Assembly: GCF_028463845.1 (NCBI RefSeq)
Contig: NZ_CP116805.1
Coordinates: forward strand, 2,972,001-3,036,000
Direction: 5' to 3'
Source: Gimibacter soli
Lineage (GTDB): Bacteria > Pseudomonadota > Alphaproteobacteria > Sphingomonadales > Kordiimonadaceae
Length of the DNA: 64,000 nucleotides
Shown here: in pieces, positions 36,289-49,488 of the stretch
How positions within the stretch are numbered: position 1 is the stretch's first letter
Layout of the letters: each line of letters opens with the position of its first letter
The notes under the pieces: generated by a model
Told to the model about the DNA's origin: nothing
The model's input: the letters and a program-made list of their open reading frames with translations, nothing else
The model's database searches: none
Position numbers and translations under genes: made by a program

Positions 36289-38571
36289 TCAGAAGTCGAT
36301 GTCGAGCGTCACAGTAGCCGAGCGGCCCGGCGCGATATAGGTGAAGGGCGCGCTGCTGCGATACAGGCTGTCGTAATAGACCTTGTCGGTCAGGTTCTGC
36401 ACATTCAGCGAGATTTCCACGCCTTCCTTCAGCTCGAAATGCGCGAAGGCATCGAAGCGCCAGTGCGAGGGCAGATAGGTGGTGCCGACATAGGTGGTGC
36501 CGCCATAAATCTTGCTCGCATACACCGCCGTACCGCCGAAGCTGAAGCGCTCGGTTGCCTGATATTTGGCAAGGAGCGTGGCGCTCGTCTCCGCCACGTT
36601 CGGCAGTTTGGAGCCGATCTCTACTTCGTTATCGGACGCAAGGATTTCGGTATCAAGAAGGGTGACGCCGCCAAACAGGCTGAGCTTTTCGGTCACATTG
36701 CCCGAAAGGCCGATTTCGAAACCGTCAACGCGCTGTTCGCCGTTGAGCGTGGTGACTTCCGACGAGCCCGAACCGGTGACCGAGCGGCCCGCCGTTTTCT
36801 CGATACGGAAGAGCGCGGCGCTCACCAGGAAATGCTCGTCGAACACGGCCCATTTGGTGCCAAGCTCGTAGTTCATGTTGCGTTCGGCATCGATGCTCTG
36901 GCTGCTGCCGGAGATGCCGCCATAGGCCGCACCGCCGCCGTCCACCTGCTCGCCCGGCGGGTTCGAGGAGGAGCCGATGGAGACATAGACGTTGCCGTTT
37001 TCAGCGGGCTTGTAGGTCACGCCTGCATGCCAGTTGAAGAAGTTGTCGTCGCTGCGAAGCTGCATGTCGCCGCCGCGGCCGCCGATGCTGGTGTAATCGA
37101 TGCCGAAGTCATCGAAACGCAGCCCGCCGAAGACCTGCCACTGGTCGTTCAGCTCGATCGTGTCGATCAGGAAGAAGGCCTTCGTGGAGATTTCGGATTC
37201 GGTGTAGGACGTGCCCGGAACCGCGAAAAGGTCCCACGGCAGGTGCGGATCGGGGTTCCACAGATTCTGCGAAACCGAAGTGCTGCCGGGGGTCGGCGCA
37301 CCGCCCGTGGACGGGTCTTCGGAATCGAGGAAACCGTAGGGGTTGTTGTGGATTTTCTCTTTCGAGAATTCGAAGCCGCCCACAAACGTGTGCTCGACGC
37401 CGCCGAAACCGGATTTCCAGGTCAGGTCCGTCTGGTTGACGAGATATTTGTTCGTCTGGTTCCGGTTCTTCGGGCTTGCCGATACGGTCCAGTTGGCCGG
37501 ATCGGGATCGGTGGTCACCGGGCGTTCGGGCGCCGAGACCACATAACCGTTCCAGGTGTGGCCGTAACGCAGGACGCTCTTCAGCACCTTGCCGTCGCTC
37601 AGCTCAGCGCGGATCTGGCCGGTCACGATGTCGATATTGTTCTTGTGGAAGTCGCGGTTCACAAGGCCGTAGAAATTGTTGCGATCCACCTTGAAGGGCT
37701 CGTTGTTGGCCACGTCATAGGGCACGCCCCAATCCGGCAGGCCGTCGGTTTCAAGGTGATAATAATCGAGGCCGAGCTCAACGGATTCGTTCATCTGGTA
37801 GGCGGCAGCAGCGGCCACACCCCAGCGCTCGTTGAAGACCTCGTCACGGCCTGCGGTTTCGCTGTCGTGATACATGCCATTGACGCGCACCGCGAGCTTG
37901 TCGCTCAGCTGGCGGTTCACGTCAGCCGTCACGCGCTTGGTGTCGTCGGTGCCGACAGTCACTTCAACGTCGCCGAAATCCTTGGCTTGCGGGGCTTTCG
38001 AGATCATCGAAATGGCGCCGCCGGTGGTGCCACGACCGCCAAAGGCCGAACTCGGGCCCTTGAAGATTTCGATCTGCTCGACCGCGAAGGTCTCGCGCGA
38101 GGTAACGCCCGGATCGCGAACGCCATCGATATAAATGTCGTTGCGGGCATCGAAACCGCGGATGAAGACGCGGTCACCGAAAGCGTTGCCGCCCTCGCCG
38201 GTACCGAGCGTGACACCCGGCTGGATGCGCATCAGGTCGCGGAAGGTGCTGGTGCCGGTATCGTCGATCAGCTCTTTCGGCAGCACGGTGATCGATTTGG
38301 CCGCATCAAGAATCGATTGCGTCAGCTTCGAGGAAGCCGAACGGTCGATCTTGTAGGGCGCCATCGGGTCGGCATAGGGGTTCGAGCCGGCCTGACGGCC
38401 TTCGACCAGAACTTCCTCGATATCGTCATTCTTCGGGTTTTTCTTCGCGTCCGCCGTGTCAGCGAAGGCGTGGGAGCTTACGAGAGCGGCCGAGAGAAGG
38501 CCAACCGTGCCGCGCGCTGCATGGCGCACTGCAACTTTCCTCAGTGAAAGAGGCTGCTTGTTACCGGACAT
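36289..38571 (-). CDS. TonB-dependent catecholate siderophore receptor (Fiu/PiuA-like)
   Basis: 760 residues from the ATG at 38571, with AGGGAT 5 nt upstream. Signal peptide to about residue 37 (VSSHAFA). The plug has [18 protein letters not shown], the [28 protein letters not shown] block and [20 protein letters not shown], followed by [19 protein letters not shown], all typical of Fiu-like receptors. The barrel ends in Phe (VTLDIDF). It heads an operon with a PiuC-type dioxygenase. A promoter with near-consensus hexamers is upstream; iron control is expected but no standard Fur box was found. Confidence 0.93.
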
Positions 38572-38650
38572 TTCGATCCCTGCGATTTTGTTATGGGGAT
38601 GTCGGTGCAATCGAAACTGAAACTCACTCTCATGAACCGACGAACGCTTC

Positions 38651-38678
38651 CTTATATGCAATCCATTCGCAGTTTCAA
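38651..38678 (-). promoter_or_regulatory. Promoter of the siderophore receptor operon
   Basis: On the minus strand TTGAAA (38673-38678) and TATAAG (38651-38656) with a 16-bp spacer, each 5 of 6 to consensus. The spacer contains TGCGAATGGATTGCA, an imperfect palindrome that would suit a repressor site. Confidence 0.6.
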
Positions 38679-38720
38679 TCTCAAAAATGTCCTTTTGAGA
38701 CAATTGTGACAAAAGCAAAG

Positions 38721-39876: not shown

Positions 39877-40776
39877 CTACTCCTGCCGCAACACCTTCCG
39901 TGCAGCGCGCTGAACGTCGCCGGTCAAAGCTTCCAGGAGCCGGGCGCCAACGCGGGACGCCTGCCAGTAAAGCCGCACCTCCGTCACCTTGCCCGGCAGC
40001 AGTTCCACCAGTCGGCCGGACTTCACATAAGGGGCGGCCAGCATCTCGGGGTTCATCCCCCAGGCGAAACCGGCGAGGGTGAGATCGATGAAGGCCTGTG
40101 TGGACGGCACCCAGTGCCGAGGTGAGGCCAGATCAACTCCGCAATAGTCCTTCGCCCAGCGTGCCTGCAGATGATCCATCCGGTCGTACCGCAGCACCGG
40201 CGCAGCCTGCAGGCTGGCCTCATCCACCCCGTTCGGGAAATGCCTTGCGACATAGGCGGGGTTCGCCACTGCCAGATAGCGCAGCGCGCCGAGCGCCACG
40301 GTGCGGCAACCCTGCACCGGTGTCGGGTCTGCCGTCACCGCCGCCAGCACCTCGCCCGAGCGTAACCGCTCGGCCGTGTGGCCCTCATCCTCCAGCACCA
40401 GATCGAACAGTGCGCCGGTCTTTTCAGAGAAGCTCGTAAGCGCTGCCGGGAACCATGTGTTCAGGCTGTCGGAATTGACGGCAATCCGGATGACCGGGCG
40501 TTCCTCCACCTGCTGCCCCAGAATCGAGGGCAGTTCCCCCACCATTTCGCTTTCCATCAGGCGGACCTGCTCGACATGGGCACAAAGCCGCGCACCCACC
40601 GCCGTGGCGCGGCATGGCTGCTCCCGCACCACCAGCACGGTGCCAAGGCGTTCCTCAAGGAGCTTCAATCGCTGCGATATGGCAGAGGGCGTTACGCCAA
40701 GGGCAGCCGCCGCGCGCTCGAAGCTGCCTTCACGCACAATCGCCGCAAGGGCGGAGAGGGACGCATAATCAAGCAC
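39877..40776 (-). CDS. argP: LysR-family regulator ArgP
   Basis: Activator of amino acid exporter genes, responding to lysine and arginine. 299 residues from a GTG at 40776 with AAGGG 8 nt upstream; an ATG two bases before is out of frame. The N-terminal HTH reads AAIVREGSFERAAAALGVTPSAISQRLK, and the effector domain (VIRIAVNSDSLNTWFPAAL; CRTVALGALRYLAVANPAYV) matches ArgP. It is divergent from a LysE/ArgO exporter gene across 70 bp, which is the classic argP-argO arrangement; control of that exporter is therefore likely. Confidence 0.92.
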   Translation of the reverse strand: MLDYASLSALAAIVREGSFERAAAALGVTPSAISQRLKLLEERLGTVLVVREQPCRATAVGARLCAHVEQVRLMESEMVGELPSILGQQVEERPVIRIAVNSDSLNTWFPAALTSFSEKTGALFDLVLEDEGHTAERLRSGEVLAAVTADPTPVQGCRTVALGALRYLAVANPAYVARHFPNGVDEASLQAAPVLRYDRMDHLQARWAKDYCGVDLASPRHWVPSTQAFIDLTLAGFAWGMNPEMLAAPYVKSGRLVELLPGKVTEVRLYWQASRVGARLLEALTGDVQRAARKVLRQE

Positions 40777-40846
40777 ATTAGAAACCCTTAATTAACATTA
40801 CATAATTGAGATACACTAATATAAGGAGCAGCGCTACAACGGCGCC

Positions 40847-41473
40847 ATGACCGATATCTTTTCAACATTCGCCAACGGCTTTGCCATCACCGCCGCCCTC
40901 ATCATGGCAATCGGGGCCCAGAATATGTTCGTGCTGCGGCAGGGCTTGCAGCGTGAACATGTAGGGCCGATCGTCCTTTTCTGTGTGGTGTCCGACGGCA
41001 TCCTGATCAGCGCCGGAGTGGCCGGCATGGGGGCAGCGCTTGAGCTTGTCCCCGGCCTGTCGCTGTTCCTGTCGCTCGGCGGCGCCTGCTTCCTTGGCTG
41101 GTACGGGGCCGTTGCCTTTCGCCGGGCGGCGACATCAAGCTCGATGCAGGTTGCGGGCGGCGGGGGCAAAACGCTTGTCGCAGCCCTCGCCGGAGCCGCC
41201 GGCTTCACCTTCCTCAACCCGCATGTCTATCTGGATACAGTGCTGCTGATGGGTGCGGTGAGTTCAACGATTGCGGAGCAGTTGCGGCCCGTGTTCGTGG
41301 CAGGCGCGCTGACGGCCAGCGTCATCTGGTTCACAGCCCTCGGCTTCGGGGCGCGTTTCCTGTCGCCCCTCTTCGCCCGGCCTGCCGCCTGGAAGATCCT
41401 TGATATTTTGGTCGGCACCATGATGGTGACCATGGCAATCGGGCTGCTGGTCCACGCCTTCGATCTGGCTTGA
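40847..41473 (+). CDS. LysE/ArgO-family amino acid exporter
   Basis: Inner-membrane exporter of basic amino acids, 208 residues with about six membrane segments. NGFAITAALIMAIGAQNMFVLRQGL at the N-terminus (positions 7-31) and AAGFTFLNPHVYLDTVLLMG in the middle are the family signatures. The ATG at 40847 is about 18 nt from the best ribosome site (AAGGAG), an unusually long gap; no better start is seen. Paired with the divergent argP regulator. The function (lysine, arginine or canavanine export) is inferred from the family. Confidence 0.9.
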   Translation: MTDIFSTFANGFAITAALIMAIGAQNMFVLRQGLQREHVGPIVLFCVVSDGILISAGVAGMGAALELVPGLSLFLSLGGACFLGWYGAVAFRRAATSSSMQVAGGGGKTLVAALAGAAGFTFLNPHVYLDTVLLMGAVSSTIAEQLRPVFVAGALTASVIWFTALGFGARFLSPLFARPAAWKILDILVGTMMVTMAIGLLVHAFDLA

Positions 41474-41483
41474 AGCCCTGACT

Positions 41484-42173
41484 TCAGGCCAGCTTGCCGA
41501 GCGACTTGAAGCCTTCGCCGAACACACGGGTCATGCGGTCAAGGATTGCGGCAAAATCGCCGGACCGGCACTGCCCGCCTGACAACACATCGATACGGCC
41601 CGTTTGCGCCAGCGACAGGGAAATCGCACCCGACATCAGGTGATAGAACCAATAGATATCGGCTTCCTTCACATCCGGGCGCACCTCGGCCAGCATCTCC
41701 ACCAGCCGCCGCACCACGGGATCGAACGGCGTGTGGGTCGTATCCACATCGCCGCCCATCGCCGTGCTGTTCAGCTTGGCGATCAGCGCACCATAGTTCA
41801 GAAAACCCGGCTCGCCCGACATCATGAAACGGAAGGTCGGCTCCAGATAGGCCCGCACCACGCCCTCGGCCGTCATCTTGCCCGCATGGCCTGCAGCATA
41901 GGCATCGAGCGATACCTGCCGGGTTTCGTTCACAATCCCGGCCCGGCGGGCAATCACGGCATCGAAAAGCCCGGCCTTGGTGTTGAAATAATAGTGCAGA
42001 AGCGACGTATCGGTCGCCGAAGCCGAGGCAATCTCGCGCATCGTGACCCCGTCATAGCCGCGCCGTGCCAGCAGCTCCTCGGCAGCGTCCAGAATACGCT
42101 CCCGCGATTCCTCGCGCCGGTCCGCCTGCCGGCGCCGCACCGGTTGTTTCTTTGCGGTTGATACTGCCGCCAT
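41484..42173 (-). CDS. TetR-family transcriptional regulator
   Basis: 229 residues. The N-terminal HTH is REESRERILDAAEELLARRGYDGVTMREIASA, followed by ATDTSLLHYYFNTKAGLFDAVI, typical of TetR proteins; the rest forms the ligand domain with a TetR_C-like segment (MLAEVRPDVKEADIYWFYHLMSGA). It is divergent from a TonB receptor, with a perfect 22-bp palindrome in the spacer, and is likely to control that receptor and the following hydrolase gene. The inducer is unknown. The ATG at 42173 follows GGGGACAGGG. Confidence 0.9.
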   Translation of the reverse strand: MAAVSTAKKQPVRRRQADRREESRERILDAAEELLARRGYDGVTMREIASASATDTSLLHYYFNTKAGLFDAVIARRAGIVNETRQVSLDAYAAGHAGKMTAEGVVRAYLEPTFRFMMSGEPGFLNYGALIAKLNSTAMGGDVDTTHTPFDPVVRRLVEMLAEVRPDVKEADIYWFYHLMSGAISLSLAQTGRIDVLSGGQCRSGDFAAILDRMTRVFGEGFKSLGKLA

Positions 42174-42237: not shown

Positions 42238-42259
42238 ATTTATTGATCGATCAATAAAT
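42238..42259. promoter_or_regulatory. Probable TetR operator (22-bp perfect palindrome)
   Basis: ATTTATTGATC followed by its exact reverse complement, in the 187-bp spacer between the TetR gene and the TonB receptor. The core TTGATCGATCAA has the size of a TetR-dimer site. The rest of the spacer is A+T rich with no firmly assignable hexamers. Confidence 0.75.
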
Positions 42260-42360
42260 AAATTGACACCAACCCGGTTTGGCGCAAGCCTGATGCTCGG
42301 CGCGTGGAGGGCGCCCGCCCCGGGACGTTACGTCAGGGGCTGAAAACGGGAGGGTTTCAT

Positions 42361-44700
42361 ATGATCAGGGTTCAACGGACTCTGCCGGCGCGGCTTCTGC
42401 TCGCCGGCGCTTCGGCAACGGCACTTGCCTCCGGCATGCCGGCCATTGCACAGGATACAACGGGCGACGAAGAGGCGCTCACCATCGATACCATCGTTGT
42501 TACGGCCCGGCGCCGCGACGAATCGATTGTCGAGGTGCCGATTGCCGTCAGCACCTTCGACGCCGACAAACTGGATATGCGCGGGGCGCTGGATATCACC
42601 GCCCTGCAACGCAACACGCCGAACCTGACACTGCAGGTTTCGCGCGGCACCAATTCCACCCTCACCGCCTTCATCCGCGGCGTGGGCCAGCAGGATCCCC
42701 TGTGGGGCTTCGAGCCCGGCGTCGGCCTTTATGTGGACGATATCTATATCGCCCGCCCGCAAGGCGCGATTCTCGACATTTTCGATATCGAACGGATCGA
42801 AGTGCTGCGCGGGCCCCAGGGCACGCTTTATGGCCGCAACACCATAGGCGGTGCGGTCAAATATGTCACCCGGCGGCTGGGGCAGGAGCCGACCTTCAAG
42901 GTCCGCACCAACCTTGGCAATTACGAACAGCGCGATCTCGTGGCCTCGGGCTCGGTGCCCCTTGGCGACAAGGTGGCACTGGGTGCCGCGATCGGCTGGT
43001 ATAACCGCGATGGCTATGGCACCAACCATTTCACGGGCGCCGAAACCAACAACAAGAAGTCGTTCGCAGCTCGCCTCACCCTTGAGGCAACGCCCAGCGA
43101 AAACCTCTTCTTCCGCCTGAGCGCGGACCGCACAGACGACGATTCGAACGCCAACCATGGCCACCGCGAAGCGGCTGTCCCTGCTGATTGGGCCGTGTTG
43201 CCAGCTGTTCTGCCGGGCTACAGCCCCTCGGCCCAGCCGGTGCCAGCGGGTGCCTTCCCGGTGCAGGCCAACAAGTATGACACGTGGGCCGGCCTCGGCG
43301 ACGATAACGAGGTCATCACCCAAGGGCTTTCGGGCCTTGTCGAATGGACGCTGAGCGACAGCCTCGTCTTCAAGTCGATCACCGCCTACCGCGACGGCGT
43401 GACCCACGGCACCGGTATCGATTTCGACGGCACCCCTGCCCCGATCCTCGATATCAGTGCGGGCGGCTCGGTTTACGATGACCACCAGTTTTCGCAGGAA
43501 CTGCAGCTGGTGATCCAGCGCGAAAGCTGGAGCGGTATCCTCGGCGCCTATTATCTGGATGCACTGGCAACCGGGCAATATGACACCGTGCTCGGCATTG
43601 GCGCTGCCGCCATTCCGGGCGTGCCGACCCCGCACCTCACGCAAGGCACCAGCGGCGAGGTGGATACCAAATCCATCGCGCTCTTTGGTGATTTCGACTT
43701 CGACCTTGGCGAGCGCTGGAACCTGTCACTCGGTGGTCGCTGGACCCGCGACAAGAAGGAAGGCACCGTCTTCAAGGCCAACTATCTGGGCCTTGGCTCG
43801 CCGATCTCGGGGGCGACCTCGAGCATCCTGATCCAGACGCTGACCGACTATACCCGCGAGCTGACCTTCGAGGAATTCACCCCGCGCGTCAGCCTTTCCT
43901 ATGCCCTTGCCGATGATATGAATGTCTATGCCGCCTATAGCCGCGGCTTCAAATCGGGCGGGTTCGACATGCGGGGCGACGCCACCGCAACCCCGGCGAC
44001 GCAAGAAGGCTACGAGCCTGAAACGGTCGATTCCTTCGAAATCGGCCTCAAGGGCAATGTGCTGGATGGCCGGCTTTCCTTCGCCGGTGCCATCTTCCAC
44101 ACCCTGTATGACGGCCAGCAGGTGACAAGCCAGCAGGTGAACCAATCGGGCACCGGCGTCGTCAGCTTTGTCGACAACGTCGGCTCTTCCACCATTAACG
44201 GCGCCGAGCTTGAGGCGACAGCCTGGTTCTCCAACGCCTTCAGTGTCGATTTCGCGCTCGGCTATGTGGACGCCAAGTTTGACGAATATCTGGCCTATGC
44301 CCCGGTTGGTGGCAGCTATGTGCAAGTGGATGTGGCCGACCAGCGCCAGTTCCAGAACACGCCGGAATGGAACGGCAACGTTGCCCTCAACTACACCGTC
44401 GATATGGACACCCGCGGCACGCTGGCGCTGCGCGGCGCCCTGTCGTTCCGCAGCTCGATCAATATGTTCGAGACACCCGTACCGGCCATCGACCAGCCGG
44501 CTTACGAGCTTCTGGACGCCAGCATTGTCTGGACGGCGGCCAACGAGAAATGGCGGGTCGGCATCCATGGCCGCAACCTGACAAACGAACGCTACAGGAC
44601 CGGCGCCTATAACTTCCCGGGCCTCGCCTTCGGGGATTCGATTATCGGCTTCTACGGTGCGCCGCGCACCATCTTTGCCTCGATCGAGTATCGCTACTGA
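42361..44700 (+). CDS. TonB-dependent outer membrane receptor
   Basis: 779 residues from the ATG at 42361 (GGAGGG 6 nt upstream). Signal peptide to about residue 31. The plug domain contains TIVVTARRRDESIVEVPIAV, FIRGVGQQDPLWGFEPGVGL and IERIEVLRGPQGTLYGRNTI, the last being the universal block; barrel ends with RY (FASIEYRY). The plug style is that of sphingomonad/caulobacter receptors for organic compounds. It is transcribed with the following alpha/beta hydrolase (62 bp, with a hairpin between), and both probably answer to the divergent TetR protein; the transported compound may be an ester or lactone. Confidence 0.93.
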   Translation: MIRVQRTLPARLLLAGASATALASGMPAIAQDTTGDEEALTIDTIVVTARRRDESIVEVPIAVSTFDADKLDMRGALDITALQRNTPNLTLQVSRGTNSTLTAFIRGVGQQDPLWGFEPGVGLYVDDIYIARPQGAILDIFDIERIEVLRGPQGTLYGRNTIGGAVKYVTRRLGQEPTFKVRTNLGNYEQRDLVASGSVPLGDKVALGAAIGWYNRDGYGTNHFTGAETNNKKSFAARLTLEATPSENLFFRLSADRTDDDSNANHGHREAAVPADWAVLPAVLPGYSPSAQPVPAGAFPVQANKYDTWAGLGDDNEVITQGLSGLVEWTLSDSLVFKSITAYRDGVTHGTGIDFDGTPAPILDISAGGSVYDDHQFSQELQLVIQRESWSGILGAYYLDALATGQYDTVLGIGAAAIPGVPTPHLTQGTSGEVDTKSIALFGDFDFDLGERWNLSLGGRWTRDKKEGTVFKANYLGLGSPISGATSSILIQTLTDYTRELTFEEFTPRVSLSYALADDMNVYAAYSRGFKSGGFDMRGDATATPATQEGYEPETVDSFEIGLKGNVLDGRLSFAGAIFHTLYDGQQVTSQQVNQSGTGVVSFVDNVGSSTINGAELEATAWFSNAFSVDFALGYVDAKFDEYLAYAPVGGSYVQVDVADQRQFQNTPEWNGNVALNYTVDMDTRGTLALRGALSFRSSINMFETPVPAIDQPAYELLDASIVWTAANEKWRVGIHGRNLTNERYRTGAYNFPGLAFGDSIIGFYGAPRTIFASIEYRY

Positions 44701-44709
44701 CCGGGGCAC

Positions 44710-44743
44710 GGTGCCGCCGGGTCCCCCAGGAACCGGCGGCGCC
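44710..44743 (+). other. Intercistronic hairpin between TonB receptor and hydrolase genes
   Basis: 11-bp stem (GGTGCCGCCGG / CCGGCGGCGCC, one G-T pair) with a 12-nt loop, starting 9 nt after the receptor stop and ending just before the AAGG of the hydrolase ribosome site. There is no T-tract, so it is more likely a stability or processing element than a terminator. Confidence 0.6.
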
Positions 44744-44762
44744 ACCAAGGATGGATGACACG

Positions 44763-45632
44763 ATGAAAGACTTTTTCTGGCGCTCGCAGGACGGGCTCAA
44801 TCTCCATGCCGCCGACTATATGCCCGAGGGCCGTATAAAGGGCCTGCCGATCATCTGCGTGCCCGGCCTCACCCGCAACGCCCGCGATTTCAGCGATTTC
44901 GCACCGTGGGCGGCGAGCCTCGGCCACCGTGTCCTTGCTGTTTCCCTGCGCGGCCGCGGCCAATCGGACCGTGACCCGAAACCGCGCCGCTACCGGCCGG
45001 ATACCTATGCCCGCGATATCGTCACACTCATGGATACACTCGGCCTTGCGCGCGCCATCCTTGTCGGCACCTCGCTTGGCGGGCTTGTCACGATGGAACT
45101 GGCGCATATCGCCCCCTACCGGGTGGCGGCGGCAGTGTTGAATGATATCGGCCCGAGTGTCGACAAAAGCGGTATCGCGCGGATTGCTTCTTACGCTGGC
45201 ACGGCGGCGCCGGTGACCGACTGGCAAAGTGCGGCAGCACACTGCGAGCGGATCAATGGCGTCGCCTTCCCGGATTTCACGGAAGACGACTGGCAGCGCC
45301 TTGCCCGCTGGACCTTCGCCGAAGGGCCGGACGGCCTACCGGTGCTGGATTATGACCGCGCCATTTTCCGCCCCGCCCCACGCTGGCTGATGCCGTTCAT
45401 CGAATGGCACCTGTGGCGGCGCTTCCGCAATCTGGCGACTGGCCGCCCCGTGCTGGCGCTGCGCGGTGCGATATCGGATATCCTGTCGGCTGAAACGCTG
45501 GCCCGCATGGGTACCACCGCCCCCGGCGTGCAGACCGTGGAAGTGCCCCGTGTCGGCCATGCCCCGACCCTTTCGGAACCTGCTGTCAAAACCGCGATGG
45601 AGGACTTCTTCGCCGTCCTGCCGCCCGCGTAG
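44763..45632 (+). CDS. Alpha/beta-fold hydrolase
   Basis: 289 residues from the ATG at 44763, 12 nt after AAGG; the ATG at 44751 touches that site. The nucleophile elbow is GTSLGG (Ser at about 98-100), the acid is probably Asp in RGAISDILSAE and the His lies in EVPRVGHAPTLSEP. The oxyanion start is IICVPGLTRNARDF. Proteins of this type cleave esters or lactones (for example homoserine-lactone or dienelactone-like substrates). Follows the TonB receptor and is likely regulated with it. No signal peptide, so cytoplasmic. Confidence 0.88.
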   Translation: MKDFFWRSQDGLNLHAADYMPEGRIKGLPIICVPGLTRNARDFSDFAPWAASLGHRVLAVSLRGRGQSDRDPKPRRYRPDTYARDIVTLMDTLGLARAILVGTSLGGLVTMELAHIAPYRVAAAVLNDIGPSVDKSGIARIASYAGTAAPVTDWQSAAAHCERINGVAFPDFTEDDWQRLARWTFAEGPDGLPVLDYDRAIFRPAPRWLMPFIEWHLWRRFRNLATGRPVLALRGAISDILSAETLARMGTTAPGVQTVEVPRVGHAPTLSEPAVKTAMEDFFAVLPPA

Positions 45633-48621: not shown

Positions 48622-49488
48622 TCAAAAAAACAGACCAAGAAGTGTCTTAACCATCAAAAGCCAGTCAGCTGAGAAAGCCACAAATATAAGCATCAAATAC
48701 AATAAATACAAAAAATAGTTTGGAACGTTTTCTTCTGTGTTTGTAAAAGATTGATACTTCTCTTTTCGGAATCCCTTTCCCAAAGAAATCCACTCTGCAG
48801 CATATATTTGAGCATCAAACTGACGCTCGATCTTATGGATCACCTTGAATTTACCCGCATTGAGTTTTCCGTAGTTTTCAATAAGACTTCTCCAAGACTT
48901 ACACATCAAAATTCCTATAAAAAATGGAAAAATTAGGAATATAGTACTCCCTTCATTCAAAATTCCTTCCTTTATCACAAACCCGGAACCAGAAATAAGG
49001 GCCCCAATAACAGTTATGAAGAATCCGTTTGTAATCTGTCTTCTACCAATAAGAGTCTCAGAGGACTCCACCATAATCCTATAGAGCTCCATAAGCTGCT
49101 GTTTATTTTCGTTGTCCACCACGAAACACTGATCAAATTCGCTTTGAAAGTCATATGCTGATTTCAGGGCCCCAAGCTTGCGGGAACCAATATCGTCGCG
49201 GGACAGTTCAACAACTGGCTTTCCAAGCTCTAACGCCTTTTCCAACTCCCACCGCGTGTTTTCCGACTCAGCACATGCCTCGGCATCGTAAATAATGACT
49301 ACCTCAGCAGAATCGATCAGGCTTTCAGCCTGAGCTTTCCATTTCTTGCCGTATGATCTTTTCAGGAAGCACGGCTGAACATGAATACCGTGAGATTGGC
49401 GAATAGATGCGAAGAACTTCGACGCTTCACCACGCATTGAGGTCCTATGTACCAAGAAGGCTTTCAATTCCTTATCGCTTACCTGCAA
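48622..49488 (-). CDS. TIR-like domain fused to RipA-like multi-spanning membrane domain (candidate defence effector)
   Basis: 288 residues. Residues about 8-97 look like a TIR fold: KAFLVHRTSM (first strand and loop), HGIHVQPCFLKRSYGKKWKA, SLIDSAEVVIIYDAEA and then AESENTRWELEKALELGKPVVEL; Glu81 of TRWELE is the candidate catalytic glutamate. Residues about 130-288 hold two hydrophobic segments (156-173 and 182-197) and a third at 258-279, with YRIMVESSETLIGRRQITNG and KLNAGKFKVIHKIE, which recall RipA-family octameric membrane proteins (from memory). The start is a TTG at 49488 without a strong ribosome site, overlapping the upstream TIR gene by 17 nt; an ATG at 49437 would cut off the first strand. 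The gene is A+T rich (30% G+C in 48661-48720). Function is inference. Confidence 0.7.
   Translation of the reverse strand: MQVSDKELKAFLVHRTSMRGEASKFFASIRQSHGIHVQPCFLKRSYGKKWKAQAESLIDSAEVVIIYDAEACAESENTRWELEKALELGKPVVELSRDDIGSRKLGALKSAYDFQSEFDQCFVVDNENKQQLMELYRIMVESSETLIGRRQITNGFFITVIGALISGSGFVIKEGILNEGSTIFLIFPFFIGILMCKSWRSLIENYGKLNAGKFKVIHKIERQFDAQIYAAEWISLGKGFRKEKYQSFTNTEENVPNYFLYLLYLMLIFVAFSADWLLMVKTLLGLFF

What the first reader, a model, noticed from the sequence alone, without database searches (positions are those of the whole stretch)
42238..44763. TetR/TonB receptor/hydrolase unit for an unknown small molecule
A divergent TetR gene, a perfect 22-bp palindrome, a TonB receptor and an alpha/beta hydrolase form one unit with a strong hairpin between the last two. 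It looks like a ligand-inducible uptake-and-cleave system, perhaps for an ester or lactone.
Basis: inference. Interest (0 to 1): 0.5.

Follow-up and report, generated by a model that had tools for sequence, protein, structure and literature searches.

The report
Conserved TetR-controlled ester-scavenging gene unit
Three neighbouring bacterial genes - a repressor, an outer-membrane uptake receptor and an ester-cleaving enzyme - form an inherited unit with its own DNA switch, and relatives of the unit hint that it scavenges small esters, possibly fragments of the storage plastic PHB.

Summary
A PsrA/NicR2-like TetR gene (41484-42173, -), a perfect 22-bp palindrome (42238-42259), a TonB-dependent receptor (42361-44700, +), a hairpin (44710-44743) and an alpha/beta hydrolase (44763-45632, +) are present; the host is close to Pseudokordiimonas caeni. 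The three genes are inherited together: the same four-genome clade appears in all three protein trees. The palindrome is a good operator candidate: ATTTATTG-N6-CAATAAAT is kept in the four units (one with one mismatch) while flanks diverge, and across related units the operator changes with the TetR recognition helix. In this genome it is a single, local site. The hairpin lacks a T-run and similar ones follow two of four other receptor genes checked, so it is not special.

The genome holds a paralogous unit with an acyl-CoA ligase. Its operator, TTCAAC-N4-GTTGAA, also precedes a permease in 13 of 41 genomes and 3-oxoacid CoA-transferase in three. Three gammaproteobacterial units carry 3-hydroxybutyrate dehydrogenase. 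This suggests 3-hydroxybutyryl esters/oligomers for the paralogous branch and a related ester here. Substrate is inferred, not shown: 0 of 24 3-hydroxybutyrate dehydrogenase loci in the host order, and 27 of 30 CoA-transferase loci, lack the operator.

The parts
41484..42173 (-). TetR-family repressor, PsrA/NicR2-like (TetR_N + TetR_C_30); recognition helix ATDTSLLHYYF
   Evidence: Pfam; NCBIfam PsrA 55.8 bits, below cutoff 300; PDB sequence matches NicR 5.6e-15 and 2fbq 1.7e-11; orthologs 96, 79, 64%
42238..42259 (.). perfect 22-bp palindrome, proposed TetR operator ATTTATTG-N6-CAATAAAT
   Evidence: one site in genome; kept in the four orthologous units, one of them with 1 mismatch
42263..42289 (+). 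conserved TTGAC(A) at 42263-42268 touching the operator, and CGCAA at 42283-42287; proposed receptor promoter
   Evidence: alignment of orthologous intergenic regions; reading as promoter is inference, the sigma-70 scan did not call it
42361..44700 (+). TonB-dependent receptor, 779 aa
   Evidence: Plug and b-barrel; orthologs 83% and 69% in G014, G020; sphingomonad relatives 58-59%
44710..44743 (+). intergenic hairpin without T-run
   Evidence: other sequence but same place in G014 and G020; not unique to this unit
44763..45632 (+). alpha/beta hydrolase (alternative start 44751), triad S104-D239-H266 counted from ATG 44763
   Evidence: Pfam; triad columns; model pLDDT 94.5; best fold match 3bwx, TM 0.90, 44% identity

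Best explanation
A small, locally controlled scavenging regulon. In the absence of substrate the PsrA-like TetR dimer sits on the 22-bp operator between the divergent genes, next to the receptor's -35-like element, and represses receptor and hydrolase (and probably itself). A substrate or its acyl product releases the repressor; the receptor then brings the compound across the outer membrane with TonB energy, a permease encoded elsewhere takes it across the inner membrane, and the cytoplasmic alpha/beta hydrolase cleaves an ester bond. The acid is passed to CoA activation encoded elsewhere. By analogy with the paralogous ligase-containing branch the ester is most likely a 3-hydroxyalkanoate oligomer or a similar hydroxy-acid ester. 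Shown by sequence: gene content, co-inheritance, operator conservation and operator/helix covariation, catalytic residues. Inferred: repression, inducer, direction of transport, site of cleavage, substrate.
For: Co-inheritance: window, G001, G014 and G020 form one clade in the receptor (100/100), hydrolase (97/88) and TetR (100/100) trees, with the same order TetR<>receptor-hydrolase. Operator: 24 of 34 columns at 42238-42271 identical in window/G014/G020 against 39 of 180 elsewhere; 2 of 20,000 permutations reach the best 34-column block. Covariation, 55 units examined: 4 of 4 units with helix [AVT]DTSL[LV]HYYF have ATTTATTG-N6-CAATAAAT at 0-1 mismatch; 28 of 29 units with helix VD[LVI]AL.[SN]YHF have TTCAAC-N4-GTTGAA at 0-1 mismatch (23 exact); 7 of 7 with VDTALVHYYF have a third, intermediate sequence. 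Regulon of the paralog: of 49 exact TTCAAC-N4-GTTGAA sites in 41 genomes (reversed control 10), 21 lie at TetR/receptor units, 13 before a permease (11 SSF, 2 MFS), 1 before 3-oxoacid CoA-transferase and 14 at places I could not assign; two more CoA-transferase sites have 1 mismatch (G000, G001). 3-Hydroxybutyrate dehydrogenase adjoins the hydrolase or tetR in L114, L126 (over the TIGR01963 cutoff) and L152 (over the PRK12429 cutoff only). The set hydrolase, dehydrogenase, CoA synthetase or ScoAB is the PHA-degradation route given in PMC7830162 (passages seen).
Against: No experiment. The 3-hydroxybutyrate clues come from the paralogous branch, not from the window's own clade. CoA-transferase carries the operator in only 3 of 30 loci examined, and 0 of 24 3-hydroxybutyrate dehydrogenase loci in the host order carry it; only 3 of 80 named hydrolase loci have the dehydrogenase nearby. 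The hydrolase is far below the curated cutoff of an intracellular PHA depolymerase model (34.6 against 300 bits) and this genome has no PHB esterase over the TIGR01840 cutoff. Many hydrolase relatives sit without receptor or TetR nearby. Sphingomonad receptor-hydrolase pairs have a different, non-TetR_C_30 TetR. The acyl-CoA ligase scores best against general long-chain models. The two SSF permeases of the alpha and gamma regulons are only 26% identical.
Confidence: 0.5

Rival explanations
1. Same regulon logic, other ester or lactone: e.g. an acyl-homoserine lactone, plant or algal ester, or aromatic ester unrelated to 3-hydroxybutyrate.
For: The hydrolase fold also matches AHL lactonases, macrolide and aryl esterases; the window clade lacks ligase, permease and dehydrogenase, so it may have changed substrate; the recognition helix and operator have changed too.
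Against: Those fold matches are much weaker (E about 1e-14, TM about 0.7) than 3bwx (1.4e-34, 0.90), whose substrate I found in no call; related regulons point to C4 hydroxy/oxo acids.
Confidence: 0.35
2. TetR and receptor are a unit, but the hydrolase is a loosely coupled neighbour separated by a transcription-reducing hairpin and serves housekeeping ester turnover.
For: Strong hairpin after the receptor stop, followed by TTTT in G020; hydrolase relatives often stand without receptor.
Against: Same clade in all three trees; receptor and hydrolase stay adjacent in sphingomonads with a gap of 2 bases in L095 and L112 and no hairpin there; similar hairpins also lie inside paralogous units (5 of 7 junctions with z below -1.5).
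Confidence: 0.12
3. The receptor takes up iron or another micronutrient and the hydrolase releases it from an ester-type carrier (siderophore esterase logic).
For: The best general receptor model is TonB-siderophor.
Against: That score is below its cutoff (135 against 223.5 bits); regulators are TetR rather than Fur, and partners are ligase, permease and CoA-transferase, not iron genes.
Confidence: 0.03

Closest known systems
PsrA (TetR repressor, Pseudomonas)
   Same: Best NCBIfam model of the TetR; the paralogous operator TTCAAC-N4-GTTGAA resembles PsrA's rpoS site TTCAAACN4GTTTGAA and consensus C/GAAACN2-4GTTTG/C (PMC13104628, passages seen).
   Different: Score 55.8 against cutoff 300; the window operator is ATTTATTG-N6-CAATAAAT, and the linked genes are a TonB receptor and a hydrolase.
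NicR/NicR2 (TetR, PDB 5fhp, 5fgl)
   Same: Best full-length PDB sequence match, 5.6e-15.
   Different: Its role in nicotine degradation is recalled; no nicotine genes here.
Alpha/beta hydrolase 3bwx, Novosphingobium aromaticivorans
   Same: Sequence E 4.7e-64; fold TM 0.90, 44% identity.
   Different: Structural-genomics entry; function found in no call.
Intracellular 3HB-oligomer hydrolases (PhaY) with BDH and ScoAB/AacS
   Same: Same kinds of enzymes gathered in the related regulons; pathway in PMC7830162 (passages), PhaY1/PhaY2 listed in PMC3430594 (passage).
   Different: No PhaY sequence was compared here; the original papers are not held. A TonB receptor and TetR are not part of the pathway as described there ('TonB' 0 occurrences).
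Sphingomonad fumonisin cluster and PEG operon (recalled)
   Same: Receptor + permease + esterase or acyl-CoA ligase in one substrate-specific set.
   Different: Recalled only; the literature search for the first found 0 papers.

Membership tests
TetR family, TetR_C_30 / PsrA | TetR_N helix-turn-helix and TetR_C_30 domain over Pfam cutoffs | tested here: met
   56.9 (cutoff 24) and 85.4 (26.3) bits
TetR family, TetR_C_30 / PsrA | PsrA equivalog cutoff | tested here: not met
   55.8 against 300 bits
TetR family, TetR_C_30 / PsrA | palindromic operator beside its own gene | tested here: met
   binding itself not tested
TonB-dependent receptor | Plug and beta-barrel domains | tested here: met
TonB-dependent receptor | membership of a named substrate subfamily | tested here: not met
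   none of the 25 NCBIfam models shown (27 matched) reaches its cutoff
alpha/beta hydrolase | fold and Ser-Asp-His triad in G-x-S-x-G | tested here: met
   geometry of the triad in the model was not measured
PHA depolymerase / 3HB-oligomer hydrolase | curated model of intracellular scl-PHA depolymerase (NF050089) | tested here: not met
   34.6 against 300 bits
PHA depolymerase / 3HB-oligomer hydrolase | hydrolysis of 3HB oligomers | not testable with these tools
   needs enzyme assay
intrinsic terminator (hairpin) | stem followed by T-run | tested here: not met
   not called by the scan; TTTT follows only in G020

The most novel reading that the evidence does not exclude
A family of TetR-controlled, TonB-dependent scavenging regulons for 3-hydroxybutyrate oligomers (fragments of PHB), in Kordiimonadales and gammaproteobacteria: receptor, SSF or MFS permease, oligomer hydrolase, CoA ligase, 3-hydroxybutyrate dehydrogenase and CoA-transferase under one operator; the window unit is a ligase-free paralogous branch with its own operator, for a related polyester fragment.
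Probability: 0.28. Interest if true: 0.7.

Novelty: new variant of a known kind. Interest (0 to 1): 0.45.

Why it matters
The substrates of most TonB-dependent receptors are unknown (general knowledge). Here a receptor comes with a predicted operator, a regulator code that changes in step with it, and a related regulon whose enzymes name a likely substrate class, so the function becomes directly testable. If right, it would give an outer-membrane entry step for polyester oligomers. My paper searches (1, 1 and 0 papers, listings only) turned up no report of one, in a library that lacks most subscription journals.

Tried and rejected
Terminator: rejected for the window hairpin, no T-run. Hairpin as a special device of this unit: weakened, 2 of 4 other receptor genes in this genome (L034 -34.5, L036 -29.9 kcal/mol) have one too, L035 and L037 do not; junctions of L070 (z -1.15), L084 (-0.17), L095 and L112 show none. 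Wider regulon of the window TetR: rejected for this genome; besides the operator and a register-shifted overlap only two 3-mismatch sites, reversed control one. 3-Hydroxybutyrate dehydrogenase as member of the paralog regulon in the host order: 0 of 24 loci. CoA-transferase as a general member: 3 of 30 loci, plus one weaker (L231, 1 mismatch, 212 bases upstream). In one search the strand was guessed wrongly for some loci with no stops on either strand; one search rescanned the whole loci on both strands. Four of the eight paralog-operator places at up to 1 mismatch in this genome (control 2) were not examined. Secreted PHB depolymerase: none over cutoff. Threonine dehydratase, S9 peptidase and KDPG aldolase neighbours of paralogous units were taken as synteny, not function.

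Literature: searches found 0 papers; one found 3, 51 and 52 one each, 65 found 67 (20 listed), 77 found 124 (8 listed); listings only, except passages of PMC7830162, PMC3430594 and PMC13104628.

Full report
Observation. The elements are as described: TetR gene 41484-42173 (-), perfect palindrome 42238-42259, TonB-dependent receptor 42361-44700 (+), hairpin 44710-44743, alpha/beta hydrolase 44763-45632 (+). ispH starts 44 bases after the hydrolase (identity of ispH by eye). The genome is one 3.59-Mb contig and the palindrome is its only match at up to 3 mismatches. The nearest held relative, G001, has a contig of the same length (319,321) as the Pseudokordiimonas caeni LB-31 contig of L090, so I take G001 to be that strain.

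One inherited unit. TetR<>receptor-hydrolase in the same order is found in G001 (TetR 96%), G014 (79%) and G020 (64%) of 59 related genomes searched (in G001 the receptor ORF was hidden by an antisense ORF and shown). Trees of the receptor (41 rows), hydrolase (35) and TetR (34) each unite these four with supports 100/100, 97/88 and 100/100. Sphingomonads L095, L102 and L112 have the nearest receptor clade (58-59% identity) directly followed by the hydrolase (45-50%), but with a divergent TetR of another kind, matching TetR_N only. So receptor and hydrolase stay together, with a divergent TetR-type regulator, even where the regulator differs.

Operator. In an alignment of the window, G014 and G020 intergenic regions the best conserved block is 42238-42271: 24 of 34 columns identical, against 39 of 180 elsewhere; 2 of 20,000 column permutations do as well. 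It contains ATTTATTG-N6-CAATAAAT and TTGAC. Among 55 units, [AVT]DTSL[LV]HYYF helices go with this operator (4 of 4, the window's own included), VD[LVI]AL.[SN]YHF helices with TTCAAC-N4-GTTGAA (28 of 29 at 0-1 mismatch, 23 exact), and VDTALVHYYF helices with AATCATTGAACGCTGAATAAA or its reverse complement (7 of 7). The units are related, so these are not independent events; but the second group spans alpha- and gammaproteobacteria. Exceptions: L031 (2 mismatches); L008 (helix ...NYYF) and L028 have the second operator with a differing helix; L140's helix could not be read; the remaining helices have neither motif at 0-1 mismatch, though L126 has one at 1 mismatch just outside the stretch used.

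Paralogous regulon. This genome has a second unit with 42-50% identical proteins and an acyl-CoA ligase between receptor and hydrolase (L070). Of the 20 loci picked from the hits for close reading (L070-L089), 16 hold TetR<>receptor with the hydrolase downstream, 9 of them with the ligase. Six named gammaproteobacterial loci (L110, L123, L130, L140, L154, L158) have TetR<>SSF permease-receptor-ligase-hydrolase. I searched the exact operator in 41 genomes: 49 sites against 10 for the reversed pattern. By coordinates and tblastn, 21 lie at TetR/receptor units; 13 lie before a permease elsewhere (SSF in G000, G001, G005, G009, G011, G012, G015, G016, G018, G019, G023; MFS in G017, G021); one lies before 3-oxoacid CoA-transferase (G020); 14 are unassigned, near the number that the control leads one to expect. 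At one mismatch, G000 and G001 also have the site before CoA-transferase, with the same 16 bases as the second site of their own TetR unit.

Substrate. CoA-transferase subunits score over their cutoffs. In Zhongshania (L114) a 3-hydroxybutyrate dehydrogenase gene follows tetR, in Pseudomaricurvus (L126) one overlaps the end of the hydrolase gene in a cluster without receptor and ligase, and in a gammaproteobacterial MAG (L152) one lies between receptor and hydrolase. Hydrolase, dehydrogenase, CoA synthetase or ScoAB are the steps of PHA-oligomer breakdown as described in PMC7830162 (passages). Against this: 3 of 80 named loci only, 27 of 30 CoA-transferase loci and 24 of 24 dehydrogenase loci in the host order without the site, no PHA-depolymerase model over cutoff for the hydrolase, and no PHB esterase over cutoff in this genome. 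For the window unit itself, which lacks these partners, the substrate is an extrapolation.

Hydrolase. Ser104 and His266 are kept in 32 of 32 aligned relatives and Asp239 in 31 of 32 (rows chosen from the 80 loci). The model (pLDDT 94.5) matches 3bwx best. No signal sequence is seen by eye, so the enzyme is probably cytoplasmic.

Hairpin. The junction hairpin recurs with other letters in G014 and G020 (z -2.7 and -4.5) and at several receptor-ligase junctions, but not all; G001's is the window's sequence with one change beside it. Two of four other receptors of this genome have one as well. I read it as a common 3'-end feature after receptor genes that may lower or protect expression; its role here is open.

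Verdict. A real, conserved regulatory and catabolic unit; ordinary in parts, new in its combination and in the lead to polyester oligomers.

Noticed in passing
48622-49488 (-): 288-aa protein with an 8xMP membrane domain in its C-terminal half behind an N-terminal domain that looks TIR-like by eye; no PADLOC match.
   Followed up: partly
39877-41473: Divergent ArgP/LysG-type LysR regulator (over cutoff) and LysE-type amino acid exporter pair beside the unit.
   Followed up: partly
36289-38718 (-): Another TonB-dependent receptor, siderophore-like by eye; the genome gives 49 matching stretches to the window receptor.
   Followed up: no
L071 1866-8237 (own genome 1155000-1170000): Third related TetR (44%) with recognition helix VHHTLLNYYF beside a distant receptor and an acyl-CoA ligase near 3-(methylthio)propionyl-CoA ligase models; none of its operators was identified.
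   Followed up: partly
L106 and L111, intergenic: A fourth palindrome, ATTAATC-N8-GATTAAT type (ATTAATCAACCGATTGATTAAT), with helix ATSAMIHYYF in two ligase-containing units.
   Followed up: no
L188 4818-6847: Small membrane protein of no known family next to the SSF permease that carries the paralog operator; kept beside it in the related genomes.
   Followed up: partly
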